Shown here: in pieces, positions 1,429 to 20,775 of the stretch
Layout: each line of letters opens with the position of its first letter
Numbering within the stretch: the first letter of the stretch is position 1
From: Eggerthella timonensis
GTDB lineage: Bacteria; Actinomycetota; Coriobacteriia; Coriobacteriales; Eggerthellaceae
DNA length: 64,000 bases
NCBI RefSeq assembly: GCF_900184265.1
Contig: NZ_FXXA01000002.1
Coordinates: forward strand, 1,262,918 to 1,326,917
Direction of reading: 5' to 3'
Notes under the pieces: model-generated
What the model was told of the DNA's origin: nothing
Database searches by the model: none
The model's input: only the letters and a program-made list of their open reading frames with translations
Program-made: the position numbers and the translations under genes

Positions 1429-2076
1429 ATGAAGCGGAGCAGAACAACGATCGTCGGCATTGCCTGCGGGTTGGCGTGCGCGGCATGCGTGCTTGCATAC
1501 ACCCAGGGCGTGCGCGGCGAAGCCGATGCGGCGCGGGCGGAGGCGTTGGCGCGCTACGGGGGCGAGCAACTGGAAGTGTGCGTGGCGAAACGCGATATCG
1601 CGGCGGGCGAATCGGTGGATGCGGGTGCGGTGGAGACGCGTTTGTGGGTGGCCGACCTGCTGCCCGCCGAGGCGTTTCGGTCGGCCGACGACGTGGTGGG
1701 GAGGAAGGCGTCGTCGACGATCCTCGCGGGCGAGGTGCTGTCGGGGCGGCGTTTTCGCGAAGCGGGCAACCGCCTCGACGTGCCCGAGGGCTTGACGGCG
1801 GTGAGCGTTCCGGCGAAGGACGTGCAGGCGGTGGGCGGCGCCGTCGCGGCCGGCTCGCAGGTGGACATGTACGCCACCGGCGGCACGTCGACCGACGTGC
1901 TGGCAAGCGGCGTGCTCGTGCTGGCCACGAGCGCGAGCACGCAGGGGTCGGCATCCGATGCGAAAGTCTCGTGGATCACCGTGGCCGTCGCGCCCGAGTC
2001 GGTGCAGGAAATCGTCGCGGCGGCGCAGAAAACCGAGCTGTACTTCACGTTGCCGGGAAGCGAGGGGGAGCGATGA
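1429..2076 (+). CDS. cpaB: CpaB/RcpC-like Flp pilus assembly protein (module I)
   Basis: A 215-aa protein with an N-terminal membrane anchor (about residues 8-26) and a SAF domain from about residue 50 (VAKRDIAAGESVDAGAVETR), followed by the RcpC/CpaB region. CpaB proteins are periplasmic or extracytoplasmic assembly factors of Tad pili; their exact role in Gram-positive bacteria is unsettled. It is the first gene of module I, preceded by GGAGAGGA, and its TGA overlaps the start of tadZ (ATGA). No CpaC secretin follows, as expected for a monoderm cell. Confidence 0.85.
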   Translation: MKRSRTTIVGIACGLACAACVLAYTQGVRGEADAARAEALARYGGEQLEVCVAKRDIAAGESVDAGAVETRLWVADLLPAEAFRSADDVVGRKASSTILAGEVLSGRRFREAGNRLDVPEGLTAVSVPAKDVQAVGGAVAAGSQVDMYATGGTSTDVLASGVLVLATSASTQGSASDAKVSWITVAVAPESVQEIVAAAQKTELYFTLPGSEGER

Positions 2077-3395
2077 GCGGATCTTTGGTGGCGCTGTGCG
2101 CCGACGCGATGAGCTTGCAGCATCCCGAGGCCATCGGGCTGGCAGGCGAGAACCTGGCGGCTCAAGGGTGGCTTCGCCTCTTCTCCTCCGCCGAGGAAGC
2201 GCGCCGGTTCCTGCGCGCGGATCGCCTGGTGGACGAGGTGTGGGTGGCGTCGAGCGACGACGTGGCGCCTATCAACCTGGCGGCAACGCTCAAGCGGGAC
2301 CGCAGCGACCGCTGCGTGTGCATGCTGGCGTTCGAGGACACGGGTTCGCTCAAGAGCAGGGTGAGCGCCACGGGCATCGACGCCTCCCTCACGCGCCAGG
2401 CGCTGGCCGATCGCTACGCGCGCCGCAAGCAGGCCTACGCGTGCCCGTGGCCGACGACGGCGCCGCAGGCCCATGCGCCCGCGACTGCGTCCGCTCCGGT
2501 CGCGCGACCCGTCCCGGGGCCCGCGCCCGCTCCCGCGCCTCGGTCGGCGCAGCTCGAGGATCGTCGCCCGCGGGCGCATGCCGGGTTCCTGCTGCCCGTG
2601 GTCAGCGGGAGCGGCGGCGCGGGCAAGAGCACGGTGGCCGTGCTTTCGGCGCTCGTCGCGCAGCGGATGGGCTTCAACACCCTGCTGCTCGATTTCGACC
2701 TGCAATTCGGCGACGTCCCGGCGCTCATGGGCGCGCAGGACCCGCTGACCGTCGACGACGTGCTGGCCGCGCCGGCGCGCCTCGACCAGCTGCGCTCCGA
2801 CGGGCGGCAACCGGCGCTTTTGGCCGCGCCGCGCCGCCTCGAGGACAGCGAGGCCGTCGTCGGGCAGGCTCCGCAGCTGCTCGACCAGCTGATGGCCCGC
2901 TTCGACGTGGTGGTGGCGAACACGGGCGCCGCCTGGGCCGAGCAACACGCCCTGCTGCTCGAGCGCAGCTCGAAGGCCCTGTTCCTCGTCGACCAGCGTC
3001 CGTCGTCGTTACGTGCCTGCCAACACGCGCTCGATTTGTGCGCGCGGTGCGGCATCGCGACTGGCCCCTTCCTGTACGCCCTCAACCGGTGCGCGAAGAA
3101 CGCGCTGTTCACGTCCATCGACGTGTCGTGCGCGCTGCGCGGCGCCCACGTGTTCGAGCTCAAGGACGGCGGCGGGGACGTGGAGGAGCTGCTGGGTTCG
3201 GGCCTGCCGTTCGAGCTGCTCGCATCGAAGAACGATCTGTGCGCGAGCCTTGAGCAGGTGCTGGCGTCCGTGTTGCCTGCCGGCGGGCGCGCGGTGCCGC
3301 AACCGGAGGACGGGTCGCCGCGCGCGACGGGGTTCCGCCTGCCGATGAACAAGCGGCCGCGCCGCAGGAGGAAGGAGGCGGCATGTCTCTCATGA
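2073..3395 (+). CDS. tadZ: TadZ/CpaE-like ParA/MinD-family ATPase
   Basis: A 440-aa cytoplasmic protein. Residues 1-115 resemble an atypical receiver domain, 130-165 are an Ala/Pro-rich linker, and from about 170 there is a ParA/MinD ATPase fold with a deviant Walker A, SGSGGAGKST (178-187), and the switch segment LLLDFDLQFGD (about 204-214). TadZ proteins localise the Tad machine. It is the only copy in the two modules, so both may depend on it. The chosen ATG lies in an ATGA overlap with cpaB; longer in-frame extensions upstream run antiparallel to no known domain and overlap cpaB. It overlaps tadA by 13 bp. Confidence 0.88.
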   Translation: MSGSLVALCADAMSLQHPEAIGLAGENLAAQGWLRLFSSAEEARRFLRADRLVDEVWVASSDDVAPINLAATLKRDRSDRCVCMLAFEDTGSLKSRVSATGIDASLTRQALADRYARRKQAYACPWPTTAPQAHAPATASAPVARPVPGPAPAPAPRSAQLEDRRPRAHAGFLLPVVSGSGGAGKSTVAVLSALVAQRMGFNTLLLDFDLQFGDVPALMGAQDPLTVDDVLAAPARLDQLRSDGRQPALLAAPRRLEDSEAVVGQAPQLLDQLMARFDVVVANTGAAWAEQHALLLERSSKALFLVDQRPSSLRACQHALDLCARCGIATGPFLYALNRCAKNALFTSIDVSCALRGAHVFELKDGGGDVEELLGSGLPFELLASKNDLCASLEQVLASVLPAGGRAVPQPEDGSPRATGFRLPMNKRPRRRRKEAACLS

Positions 3396-18902: not shown

Positions 18903-20775
18903 AAAGCAACGCATCGCGCGCACGCTGCTGGCGGCGGCCGTGCTGTTGTGCGCGAGCTTCGGCCTCGCCGCCCTGGAGACGGGCGAGGCCTTCGCGTACT
19001 CCTATCGGACGACGAACACCACGTCGATCTACAATCGCGCCTGGATCAGGGTCGACCCGTCGGCGAACTACCTCGAGCTCATCGGCTCCGACCCCATCGG
19101 TCCGCGCTTCGACATGCCCAGCTGGAACGCTCCCGGCGGCATCCATTCGCGAATCGAAGCCTACCAGTTCGCCGTCTGGAGCGTCGCGAACGGACAGGAC
19201 GACCTCGCCTGGTACTCGGGCGGCAACGGCCGATGGACCCGGGCGGGCGCGGTGATGGGCAGCGGCAAGCTGGACGGCAGCGGCAACGGCAACGGGTTCG
19301 GGTGCATCGCCACGTACGGATACGGATGGGGCGGCTCCGTCGTGTCCAAGCATGGAGGGTTCGACGCGCTCATGGCCTGCCACGTGTACCTCACGAACGC
19401 CGATTACGGGCTCAACAACTACGGGTACGTCGACTTCTGGCCGCGTGTGAAAATCGCCTACGATGCGAACGGCGGAACCGGCGCGCCCGCAGCGCACTAC
19501 AAGTACATCGGCACCACGGCGAACATCTCATCGCAGAAACCCACGAGGGTCGGCTACACGTTCGAAGGGTGGTCGACCGTCAAGAACGGGGCTGTGGACA
19601 TCGCTCCCGGCCAGAAGGTGGGATACGAGGATTGGAACCTCCAACAGTGCAGCAACATCCCGCACGATTGGGAGGGTACGCATCCCACGGCGTTCTTCCG
19701 CGACCCGTCCGCCGGCCAGCCGTCGCCCTCGGGCTCGAACGTCATCCCGCTGTACGCCGTGTGGAAGCCGATCTCCTACACCGTGTCCTACAACGGAAAC
19801 GGCGCGACCTCCGGAAGCACCGCGTCGTCGTCGCACGTGTACGATGCGGCGAAGACGCTCACCTCGAACGGGTTCCGGCGCAGCTACGCGCTCACGTGCG
19901 ACGCCCAGGGAGGGTCGGCGGGCGTCACGCGGCTGGACTGCACATGGAAATGGAAGTCGTGGAACACGCGCGCCGACGGAGGCGGGGCGTCGTACGGGAA
20001 CCGGGTCTCCGTCAGGAACCTGCGCACGACGACGGGAACCACGAACCTCTACGCGCAATGGAGCGAGGGAGTCGTCGAGCTGCCCGATCCGGGAACGAAG
20101 GCGGATTGCGCGTTCAAGGGATGGTACGACGCCCCTTCGGGCGGCTCGCCCATCGGCAAGGCGGGCGATCGCGTGTCCATCGGGTCGAGCACGACCTACT
20201 ACGCGCAGTGGCAGCCGTACGCGCGCATCGCCTACTACGCCGACGGCGCCGGTTCGCCCGTGTTCTCGGAATCCGTCGAAGCAGGGACCGCTTATCGGGC
20301 GAACGCCCGGGCTGCCGCGCAGGCGACGCGCCCCGACTGCGCGGGCTTCGACGGCTGGTACCTCGACGCCGCCTGCACGCAGCCCTTCGTCGAGGGCTCG
20401 GCCGTGCCTGAAGCGGGGCTCGCGCTGTACGGGCGCAACCGCGTAAGGGTCTCCTACGCGCCCACCGACCGAACCGTCGCCCTCTTCGCCGATCGCGAGC
20501 TGTTCGCCGACGAGGGCGGGCTTCGGCCGCTTGCGCACGGTGTCGAGCTTCCCCAAGCGCGCGAGCTGTTCTACGGCGAGCGCCTCTCGTTCGATCGAGG
20601 CGGCAGCGCGTGGTTCAAGCAGCACGACCGCATGCGCGAAGCGACCTGCGAGCCGGGAGCCTATGCGACGCCTGCAGGCGAGGGCGGCCTCGCCCGCTCG
20701 GCGCGCATCACCCGCAATACCGTCGCGTACCTGCAATGGTCGGTCCCCGTCTACGACGGCATCGCCCTGTCATAA
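18889..20775 (+). CDS. Secreted InlB B-repeat/Flg_new-repeat protein, candidate adhesin
   Basis: A 628-aa protein with a signal peptide (hydrophobic 12-34, probable cleavage after AFA at 36). Residues about 40-180 form a unique domain rich in Trp, Tyr and Asn. At least four repeats of the Listeria-Bacteroides (InlB B-repeat, Flg_new) type follow, starting near residues 188, 294, 394 and 444, with the hallmarks YDANGGTGAP, GYTFEGWS and FKGWYDAPSGG. No LPXTG motif, C-terminal membrane span or cell-wall repeat is seen, so anchoring is unexplained; binding to the pilus is possible. It is the last gene of module II. Such repeats occur in adhesins and other secreted proteins. Confidence 0.8.
   Translation: MPKREKQRIARTLLAAAVLLCASFGLAALETGEAFAYSYRTTNTTSIYNRAWIRVDPSANYLELIGSDPIGPRFDMPSWNAPGGIHSRIEAYQFAVWSVANGQDDLAWYSGGNGRWTRAGAVMGSGKLDGSGNGNGFGCIATYGYGWGGSVVSKHGGFDALMACHVYLTNADYGLNNYGYVDFWPRVKIAYDANGGTGAPAAHYKYIGTTANISSQKPTRVGYTFEGWSTVKNGAVDIAPGQKVGYEDWNLQQCSNIPHDWEGTHPTAFFRDPSAGQPSPSGSNVIPLYAVWKPISYTVSYNGNGATSGSTASSSHVYDAAKTLTSNGFRRSYALTCDAQGGSAGVTRLDCTWKWKSWNTRADGGGASYGNRVSVRNLRTTTGTTNLYAQWSEGVVELPDPGTKADCAFKGWYDAPSGGSPIGKAGDRVSIGSSTTYYAQWQPYARIAYYADGAGSPVFSESVEAGTAYRANARAAAQATRPDCAGFDGWYLDAACTQPFVEGSAVPEAGLALYGRNRVRVSYAPTDRTVALFADRELFADEGGLRPLAHGVELPQARELFYGERLSFDRGGSAWFKQHDRMREATCEPGAYATPAGEGGLARSARITRNTVAYLQWSVPVYDGIALS

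What the first reader, a model, noticed from the sequence alone, without database searches (positions are those of the whole stretch)
1429..20775. Two consecutive Tad/Flp pilus modules sharing one TadZ and one prepilin peptidase
Module I (1429-12334) and module II (12356-20775) each have CpaB, TadA, TadB, TadC and several pseudopilins, all on one strand with mostly 4-bp overlaps. Only one TadZ and one peptidase are present. The two TadA proteins differ in structure (an insertion in the second), so this is not a recent duplication. The cell may build two fibres, or one composite fibre, from a single locus.
Basis: partly seen in the sequence, partly recalled or inferred. Interest (0 to 1): 0.75.

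Follow-up and report, generated by a model that had tools for sequence, protein, structure and literature searches.

The report
Two docked Tad pilus machines
Some gut bacteria related to Eggerthella carry, in one gene row, two different machines for building hair-like surface fibres; the second has subunits with an unusual joining surface, apparently shares the pilin-cutting enzyme at the junction, and ends with an adhesin-like protein, so one cell may build two chemically distinct fibres.

Summary
In detail: 24 genes on one strand (1429-20775) encode two Tad machines with one TadZ and one A24 prepilin peptidase. It is not a recent tandem duplication: TadA1 and TadA2 form separate clades, gene order differs, and TadA2 has a 13-residue insertion. 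Module I is the family's common Tad locus (72 of 79 genomes). Module II is an add-on in 12 of 79, each time 11.6-13.0 kb behind TadA1, in the same gene order. New: (a) module-I Flp/TadE proteins keep Glu5 (291 of 292 rows), module-II pseudopilins never do (0 of 60); Flp2 and one TadE show invariant E2/Q5. Glu5 and Tyr6 are called crucial for Tad assembly (PMC11067988). (b) The peptidase has a 118-residue N-terminal domain in two-module loci, not found in nine single-module locus peptidases, but related to that of stand-alone Tad loci. TadZ 'sharing' is not special: six stand-alone accessory Tad loci show none either. Most likely two separate fibres with orthogonal subunits; unproven. In the window strain the flp2 leader contains an in-frame stop.

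The parts
1429..2076 (+). cpaB1/rcpC (module I)
   Evidence: Pfam RcpC 3.6e-11, SAF 5e-10
2073..3395 (+). tadZ/cpaE-like ParA-type ATPase, the only TadZ found in the genome
3383..4705 (+). tadA1 ATPase (family-wide type)
   Evidence: T2SSE 2.8e-64; TIGR03819 8e-100 but below that model's cut-off; strong relative in 72 of 79 family genomes
4675..5643 (+). tadB1 platform protein
   Evidence: T2SSF 1.4e-17
5643..6584 (+). tadC1 platform protein
   Evidence: T2SSF 4.6e-12
6602..6802 (+). flp1 major prepilin, canonical G|QGTTEY
   Evidence: Class_IIIsignal and Flp1_like below cut-off; Glu5 in 74 of 74 rows
6766..7026 (+). tadE-like minor pilin 1a, G|QGTIEF (GTG start at 6766 presumed)
   Evidence: TadE 0.002, below cut-off; Glu5 in 73 of 73 rows
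7052..7558 (+). tadE minor pilin 1b, G|QATVEA
   Evidence: TadE 1.2e-10; Glu5 in 73 of 73 rows
7555..9675 (+). tadG-like large minor pilin (706 aa), no Glu5
   Evidence: Tad domain 0.0016, below cut-off; G, S, A or T at +5 in 73 of 73 rows
9666..10103 (+). tadE-like minor pilin 1c, G|QMTVEL
   Evidence: TadE 0.004, below cut-off; Glu5 in 71 of 72 rows
10100..10552 (+). small protein with N-terminal hydrophobic stretch, unknown
   Evidence: no family above cut-off; matched in the module-I loci
10549..10902 (+). DUF192 protein (module I)
   Evidence: DUF192 1.2e-7
10899..11435 (+). zinc-ribbon protein, usual last recognised gene of module I
   Evidence: Zn-ribbon matches below cut-off; position
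11432..12334 (+). A24 prepilin peptidase with 118-residue N-terminal domain (11432-11785), presumed to serve both modules
   Evidence: Peptidase_A24 4.4e-8; domain distribution
12356..12589 (+). flp2, small pilin-like protein GG|SEIVQT; in-frame TAA at 12371-12373 in the leader in this strain, open from 12374
   Evidence: no Pfam or NCBIfam hit
12579..13097 (+). tadE-like pseudopilin 2a, G|SSVVTF
   Evidence: TadE 2.7e-9; no acidic residue at +5 in 15 of 15
13091..13570 (+). tadE-like pseudopilin 2b, G|SEVVQF
   Evidence: TadE 5.5e-5; E2/Q5 in 15 of 15
13567..14172 (+). tadG-like pseudopilin, Leu5
   Evidence: Tad domain 0.0028, below cut-off; L5 in 15 of 15
14182..15135 (+). cpaB2/rcpC (module II)
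   Evidence: RcpC 3.2e-14
15119..16438 (+). tadA2 ATPase with 13-residue insertion
   Evidence: T2SSE 2.5e-43; insertion; own clade
16452..17372 (+). tadB2 platform protein
   Evidence: T2SSF 9.3e-16
17369..18310 (+). tadC2 platform protein
   Evidence: T2SSF 1e-14
18321..18902 (+). protein u4 with N-terminal hydrophobic stretch
   Evidence: no Pfam hit; found by tblastn in 5 of 11 relatives
18889..20775 (+). adhesin-like protein with Sec-like signal and Listeria-Bacteroides repeats; C-terminal ~185 aa conserved, N-terminal part replaced by a ricin-type lectin region in some relatives
   Evidence: Flg_new 1.4e-21; the signal is my reading of the sequence, no predictor was run

Best explanation
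Two Tad machines of different descent are docked in one presumed operon. Module I is the ancestral Tad locus of Coriobacteriales (order cpaB-tadZ-tadABC-pilins). Module II is an accessory Tad machine (order pilins-cpaB-tadABC, no TadZ), fixed behind the peptidase gene in one clade of the family. Inferred mechanism: the single peptidase at the junction cuts both prepilin sets. TadA1/B1/C1 assemble Glu5 subunits (Flp1 and TadE types) into the ordinary Flp fibre. TadA2/B2/C2 assemble a second fibre from Flp2, two TadE-like and one TadG-like subunit, all without Glu5, with E2/Q5 taking over the N-terminal contacts. This different chemistry keeps the two subunit pools apart. The second fibre is presumed to work with the adhesin-like last gene, and the peptidase's extra N-terminal domain to serve module II. 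Shown: gene content, conservation, synteny, separate descent, residue pattern, domain co-occurrence. Inferred: co-transcription, peptidase sharing, filament formation, orthogonality, adhesin display.
For: The 12 two-module genomes show the same order of all genes detected (cpaB1 is cut off by the contig start in G063) and TadA2 11.6-13.0 kb behind TadA1 on the same strand. TadA1 and TadA2 are separate groups (SH-aLRT 100 each) with matching subclades, as in co-inheritance. dN/dS is below 1 for all 24 genes: 0-0.39 against G070, 0.01-0.54 against E. sinensis, 0.04-0.70 against L077; flp2 is the most constrained (dN 0, 0.008, 0.049). Glu5 in 291 of 292 module-I Flp/TadE rows, acidic +5 in 0 of 60 module-II rows; E2/Q5 in 15 of 15 for both Flp2 and TadE2b. 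Peptidase N-terminal domain in the 12 two-module loci (whose sequences made the profile) and in three further named loci, not found complete in nine single-module locus peptidases, but related stretches in peptidases of stand-alone Tad loci L095 (E 1.3e-8) and L097 (2e-5). Locus peptidase is the only A24 match in G056, G023 and G063. Adhesin-like gene behind tadC2 in all 12 genomes.
Against: No experiment. Glu5 and Tyr6 are reported as crucial for Tad assembly (PMC11067988), so Flp2 (Q5, T/V6) may not polymerise, or Gln5 may be a mere hydrogen-bonding substitute. Flp-like proteins without Tyr6 were already described in Gram-positive bacteria (PMC3244431), so that loss alone is not new. In the window strain the flp2 leader has a stop codon. 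In Micrococcus luteus two Tad clusters are both needed for one pilus (PMC4322843). The G. pamelaeae record L109 shows module II from mid-tadA2 on, with no Tad gene found in its gapped upstream 10 kb. Pfam A24 searches can miss divergent peptidases: G012's third Tad locus has one, partly inside an assembly gap, that one search did not list. TadG-like subunits lack Glu5 in both modules. A stand-alone Tad locus of the same genome (L093) also lacks Glu5, so the trait is not unique to docking. Rows in the counts are related, not independent, and a few module-I TadE rows may be cross-matches between TadE genes.
Confidence: 0.55

Rival explanations
1. One composite fibre or obligate partnership: both machines are needed for one Flp1 pilus, module II supplying an accessory base or tip, as in Micrococcus luteus.
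For: M. luteus: two tad clusters 1.2 Mb apart, one tadV, both needed for extracellular Flp (PMC4322843, passages). In the 12 sampled genomes module II lies behind module I. Glu5-less subunits are known as filament caps (PMC10191384, passages).
Against: Module II has its own Flp-like subunit, the most constrained protein of the locus; in M. luteus only one cluster has Flp and the sites quoted keep Glu5. Module I occurs without a TadA2 relative in 60 of the 72 family genomes that have TadA1 (drafts included).
Confidence: 0.2
2. Module II is a short pseudopilus (type II secretion-like piston) that exports or positions the adhesin-like protein rather than making a surface fibre.
For: All four subunits lack Glu5. 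An adhesin-like gene is linked to the module in the 12 genomes, and matches to it also lie near two of six stand-alone Tad loci (L093, L097).
Against: The adhesin has a Sec-like signal of its own, and these bacteria have no outer membrane to cross (general knowledge). Flp2 is a very conserved small helical subunit, as expected of a major pilin.
Confidence: 0.15
3. Module II is inactive in the window strain: the flp2 leader stop abolishes the Flp-like subunit there, although the module works in relatives.
For: In-frame TAA five codons after an ATG that lies 27 codons before the cut, a leader length also seen in relatives.
Against: The other module-II genes are open, and flp2 shows no amino-acid change against G070 over the 58 codons compared. 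A GTG at 12413 or another weak start could restart translation; a sequencing error is possible.
Confidence: 0.35
4. The peptidase was acquired by module I before module II arrived and is not of module-II origin.
For: On the module-I tree the locus peptidase also occurs in lineages outside the common ancestor of the two-module genomes (G067, G028/G068, G010), so 'peptidase first' needs fewer losses.
Against: Its N-terminal domain is related to that of peptidases of stand-alone accessory Tad loci and was not found complete in any of the nine single-module locus peptidases.
Confidence: 0.5

Closest known systems
Tad / Flp (type IVc) pilus
   Same: TadA, TadB, TadC, CpaB, TadE/TadG-like subunits, A24 peptidase; module I also TadZ and a canonical Flp
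   Different: two machines in one row; module II lacks TadZ, and its Flp-like subunit lacks Glu5 and Tyr6
Flp-like pilins of Gram-positive tad operons (PMC3244431, passages)
   Same: small Flp-like proteins without the conserved Tyr6; multiple tad operons per genome
   Different: in the passages read, only the loss of Tyr6 distinguishes them; here Glu5 is lost as well, in all four subunit types of one module
Micrococcus luteus tad-1/tad-2 competence pilus (PMC4322843, passages)
   Same: two Tad clusters with a single peptidase in an actinobacterium
   Different: there the clusters are 1.2 Mb apart and only one has Flp; the processing sites quoted keep Glu5
Myxococcus Kil system (PMC12075869, passages)
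   Same: minor-pilin tip sets with specialised domains, and a prepilin peptidase needed for some sets only
   Different: one major pilin with several tips; here the machine itself is doubled
Stand-alone accessory Tad loci of Eggerthella relatives (L092-L097)
   Same: no TadZ found, cpaB-tadA-tadB-tadC order; in L093, L095 and apparently L097 the peptidase lies directly before the Flp-like gene; L095 and L097 peptidases carry a related N-terminal stretch
   Different: not joined to module I; Glu5 partly kept; TadA outside the TadA2 clade

Membership tests
Tad pilus, module I | TadA, TadB, TadC, CpaB, TadZ | tested here: met
Tad pilus, module I | Flp with G/XXXXEY | tested here: met
   GQGTTEY; Glu5 in 74 of 74 rows; Pfam matches below cut-off
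Tad pilus, module II | TadA, TadB, TadC, CpaB | tested here: met
Tad pilus, module II | Flp with G/XXXXEY | tested here: not met
   GSEIVQ followed by T or V in 15 of 15; no Pfam or NCBIfam hit
Tad pilus, module II | TadZ in the module | tested here: not met
   cpaB2 and tadA2 overlap; the TadZ profile hits only 2073-3395 in the first 21 kb of the window
Tad pilus, module II | own prepilin peptidase | tested here: inconclusive
   single peptidase at the junction, ownership ambiguous
Tad pilus, both modules | extracellular filament | not testable with these tools
   needs microscopy and mutants
Recent tandem duplication | modules are sister copies with the same gene order | tested here: not met
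   separate clades, different order, insertion
M. luteus-type co-dependent Tad pair | both clusters needed for one pilus | not testable with these tools
   needs deletions

The most novel reading that the evidence does not exclude
Module II builds a second kind of type IVc filament whose core is held by an E2/Q5 contact instead of the Glu5/Tyr6 network thought to be universal. The swap makes its subunits orthogonal to the Glu5 pilus made from the same operon, and the shared prepilin peptidase carries an added N-terminal domain dedicated to the second subunit set.
Probability: 0.35. Interest if true: 0.8.

Novelty: new variant of a known kind. Interest (0 to 1): 0.62.

Why it matters
It offers a natural test of what Glu5 does in type IV filaments: two machines side by side in one cell, one subunit set with Glu5 and one without, kept through six genera. 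It also offers a natural test of how one peptidase serves two machines, since a discrete peptidase domain comes and goes with module II. Record titles name Eggerthella, Paraeggerthella, Gordonibacter, Rubneribacter and Senegalimassilia among the carriers; these are gut bacteria (general knowledge). No paper in the searched library held both 'Tad pilus' and 'Eggerthella'.

Tried and rejected
Recent tandem duplication: rejected. Decayed module in all relatives: rejected. 'Module II lost TadZ because it borrows module I's': not supported. No TadZ was found in six of six stand-alone accessory loci, while module I (21 of 21, the sequences of the profile itself) and nine of nine other Tad loci have it; L096 is only 6 kb long and L097 holds a gap. 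All Tad machines of one cell could still use the single TadZ in trans. TadA2 as sister of the stand-alone loci: not resolved (open fork); only similarity of other genes and gene order link them. Structure search with the peptidase model (pLDDT 90) gave no useful match. The adhesin model is poor overall (pLDDT 49); only about residues 440-620 are confident, and its best matches are weak, among them a mannose-binding surface protein and an internalin repeat. NCBIfam named no module-II pilin at its cut-off. Promoter scan: one site, behind the operon, about as many as in shuffles. u4 was found in 5 of 11 relatives; absence elsewhere may be divergence.

Papers. Passages only: PMC11067988, PMC4322843, PMC12075869, PMC10191384, PMC3244431; all others only as search listings. 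Novelty claims rest on those searches; the library lacks most subscription journals and holds no preprints.

Recalled, from no call: that a 3,632,260-bp chromosome (G070) is E. lenta DSM 2243.

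
Full report
What is there. The region 1429-20775 holds 24 genes on the + strand with gaps of at most 25 bp. Module I: cpaB, tadZ, tadA, tadB, tadC, flp, two TadE-like, a 706-residue TadG-like, a third TadE-like, a small protein, a DUF192 protein and a zinc-ribbon protein. Then comes an A24 peptidase. Module II: a small Flp-like protein, two TadE-like, one TadG-like, cpaB, tadA, tadB, tadC, a small protein and an adhesin-like protein. A HicA/HicB pair follows. No terminator-like site lies between 10669 and 12674, so one transcript is plausible but not shown.

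Distribution. Of 79 family genomes, 72 have a strong TadA1 relative (E below 1e-138; one more partial). Twelve, from six genera, have a TadA2 relative at 70% identity or more; the next match by score has 44%. In all twelve, TadA2 lies 11.6-13.0 kb behind TadA1 on the same strand (positions), and the genes detected come in the same order (in G063 the contig begins inside tadZ). A profile of Flp2 hit 9 of 148 genomes of the class and 7 of 396 of the phylum, all in this family. A named scan gave 13 loci: one distant, one that begins just before tadA2 (L108), one exception (L109), and ten complete ones, of which L100, L104 and L107 were added to the twelve for residue counts. The exception is the gapped G. 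pamelaeae record L109, which has module II from mid-tadA2 on; no Tad gene was found in the 10 kb before it, of which 1,962 bases are N.

Descent. In a tree of 90 TadA rows, 21 TadA1 rows and 12 TadA2 rows fall on opposite sides with full support (quick method, midpoint root). The subclades match between the two (window with G070 and G031; G053 with G007 and G023; G063 with G003; G075 with G041; G012 with G056), as expected from long co-inheritance. TadA1 matches in 30 of 30 genomes sampled in the order (E 1.4e-114 or better). Gene order also differs: pilins last in module I, first in module II. Six loci from other orders of the class have pilin-like matches first and a TadZ between cpaB and tadA, where pilins were detected. 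TadA2 has a 13-residue insertion. So this is not a recent duplication.

Selection. dN/dS is at most 0.39 against G070, 0.54 against E. sinensis (L073) and 0.70 against L077, over all 24 genes. Flp2 is the most constrained: no amino-acid change against G070 over the 58 codons compared.

Residue 5. Tad pilins are cut after a glycine and usually carry Glu at +5, with Tyr at +6 in Flp. In Caulobacter these two form the hydrogen-bond network of the filament core, are described as crucial for assembly and are suggested to be universal (PMC11067988, passages). Flp-like proteins without Tyr6 are known in Gram-positive bacteria (PMC3244431, passages). Module I keeps Glu5: Flp1 74 of 74 rows, TadE1a 73 of 73, TadE1b 73 of 73, TadE1c 71 of 72 (rows = loci with a match, best tblastn match per locus, so a few TadE rows may be cross-matches). 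Module II has no acidic residue there: 0 of 60 rows (15 loci, four subunits). Flp2 is GSEIVQ followed by T or V, and TadE2b is G, S or G, E, any, V, Q, in 15 of 15 each. TadE2a has T, A, V, S or M at +5, and the TadG-like subunit has L. TadG-like subunits lack Glu5 in module I too, so that part is ordinary. The stand-alone accessory loci are mixed: several keep Glu5, while L093 of the window's own genome has none at +5 in the subunits read. The shared E2/Q5 motif of Flp2 and TadE2b, against the shared Q1/E5 motif of module I, suggests that each set packs with itself. This is inference.

Peptidase. Direct inspection of 74 loci and A24 matches across 79 genomes show that module I usually ends with the zinc-ribbon gene. 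Of 65 family loci with a visible 3' end, all 12 two-module loci have the peptidase there; of 53 single-module loci 9 have it and in 44 it was not found (some are cut short by contig ends). On a tree of 70 module-I loci the 21 carriers lie in one clade (SH-aLRT 87) with two loci without it; none was found in the 47 loci outside, two of which do not reach the 3' end. The two-module peptidase has 118 extra N-terminal residues, with conserved Trp, Gly and Arg positions in an alignment of 11 that includes three further loci. A profile made from the twelve matches all twelve by construction. Outside them it finds no complete copy in the nine single-module locus peptidases (two match only within the first 39 positions), but related stretches in peptidases of two stand-alone Tad loci (E 1.3e-8 and 2e-5; the second runs into an assembly gap). 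The domain is predicted as well-ordered helices. In G056, G023 and G063 the locus peptidase is the only A24 match, and only two TadA matches are seen. G012 also shows one A24 match, but its third Tad locus has a further peptidase partly in a gap. In five single-module genomes (G045, G006, G010, G052, G068) the locus peptidase without the complete domain is the only A24 match, so the core alone probably suffices for module I. Some of these matches are below Pfam's cut-off, so other peptidases may have been missed. Whether the peptidase or module II came first is open: tree parsimony favours the peptidase, domain homology favours a module-II-type origin.

TadZ. One TadZ was found in the window genome. 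A TadZ profile finds it in 21 of 21 module-I loci (its own sequences) and nine of nine other Tad loci, but in none of six stand-alone accessory loci within the stretches fetched. Absence of TadZ therefore looks like a trait of accessory Tad machines here, not a special effect of docking.

Adhesin. The last gene has a Sec-like signal (my reading), Listeria-Bacteroides repeats and a conserved C-terminal part of about 185 residues found behind tadC2 in the 12 genomes. Its N-terminal part varies: three of four tested relatives carry a ricin-type lectin region instead, the fourth had no Pfam match. A conserved base with exchangeable heads fits a fibre-linked adhesin; display on the fibre is a guess.

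Mechanism and rivals. The best reading is two machines, one peptidase, two chemically separated fibres. The main rival is partnership in one pilus, for which M. luteus is a real precedent (PMC4322843). A secretion-type pseudopilus is a third. The Kil system shows that a prepilin peptidase can be needed for some pilin sets only (PMC12075869). A caveat for this strain is the stop codon in the flp2 leader: Shine-Dalgarno-like AAGGAG and ATG at 12356, TAA at 12371, open again from 12374. It may silence Flp2 here, be bypassed from a weak start, or be a sequencing error; 11 of 11 relatives are open.

Novelty. Tad loci in several copies are well known. I saw no report of this docked pair, of Flp-like subunits without Glu5, or of the peptidase domain in the listings and passages; the library lacks most subscription journals and preprints. 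I rate it a new variant of a known kind.

Noticed in passing
window 12356-12436: In-frame TAA in the flp2 leader of this strain; 11 of 11 relatives are open there.
   Followed up: partly
   Followed up: no
own genome G000:C2 about 391-396 kb and 3738-3743 kb (L092, L093): Two further Tad loci, each with an A24 match nearby (the first below the cut-off) and no TadZ found; the Flp-like protein of L093 has its acidic residue one place later, at +6.
   Followed up: partly
L100, L101, L105 adhesin genes behind tadC2: N-terminal part of the module-II adhesin replaced by a ricin-type lectin region while the C-terminal part is conserved.
   Followed up: partly
window 10549-10902 and several stand-alone Tad loci: DUF192-like matches recur beside Tad loci of this order in different positions; function unknown.
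   Followed up: no
window 20785-21506: HicA/HicB toxin-antitoxin pair directly behind the operon, preceded by the only promoter-like site found in the region.
   Followed up: no
window 1001-1118: tRNA-Val gene on the minus strand with a perfect 16-bp inverted repeat behind it, just upstream of the operon.
   Followed up: no
L109 (Gordonibacter pamelaeae 7-10-1-b): Module II from mid-tadA2 on without visible module I upstream in a gapped assembly.
   Followed up: partly
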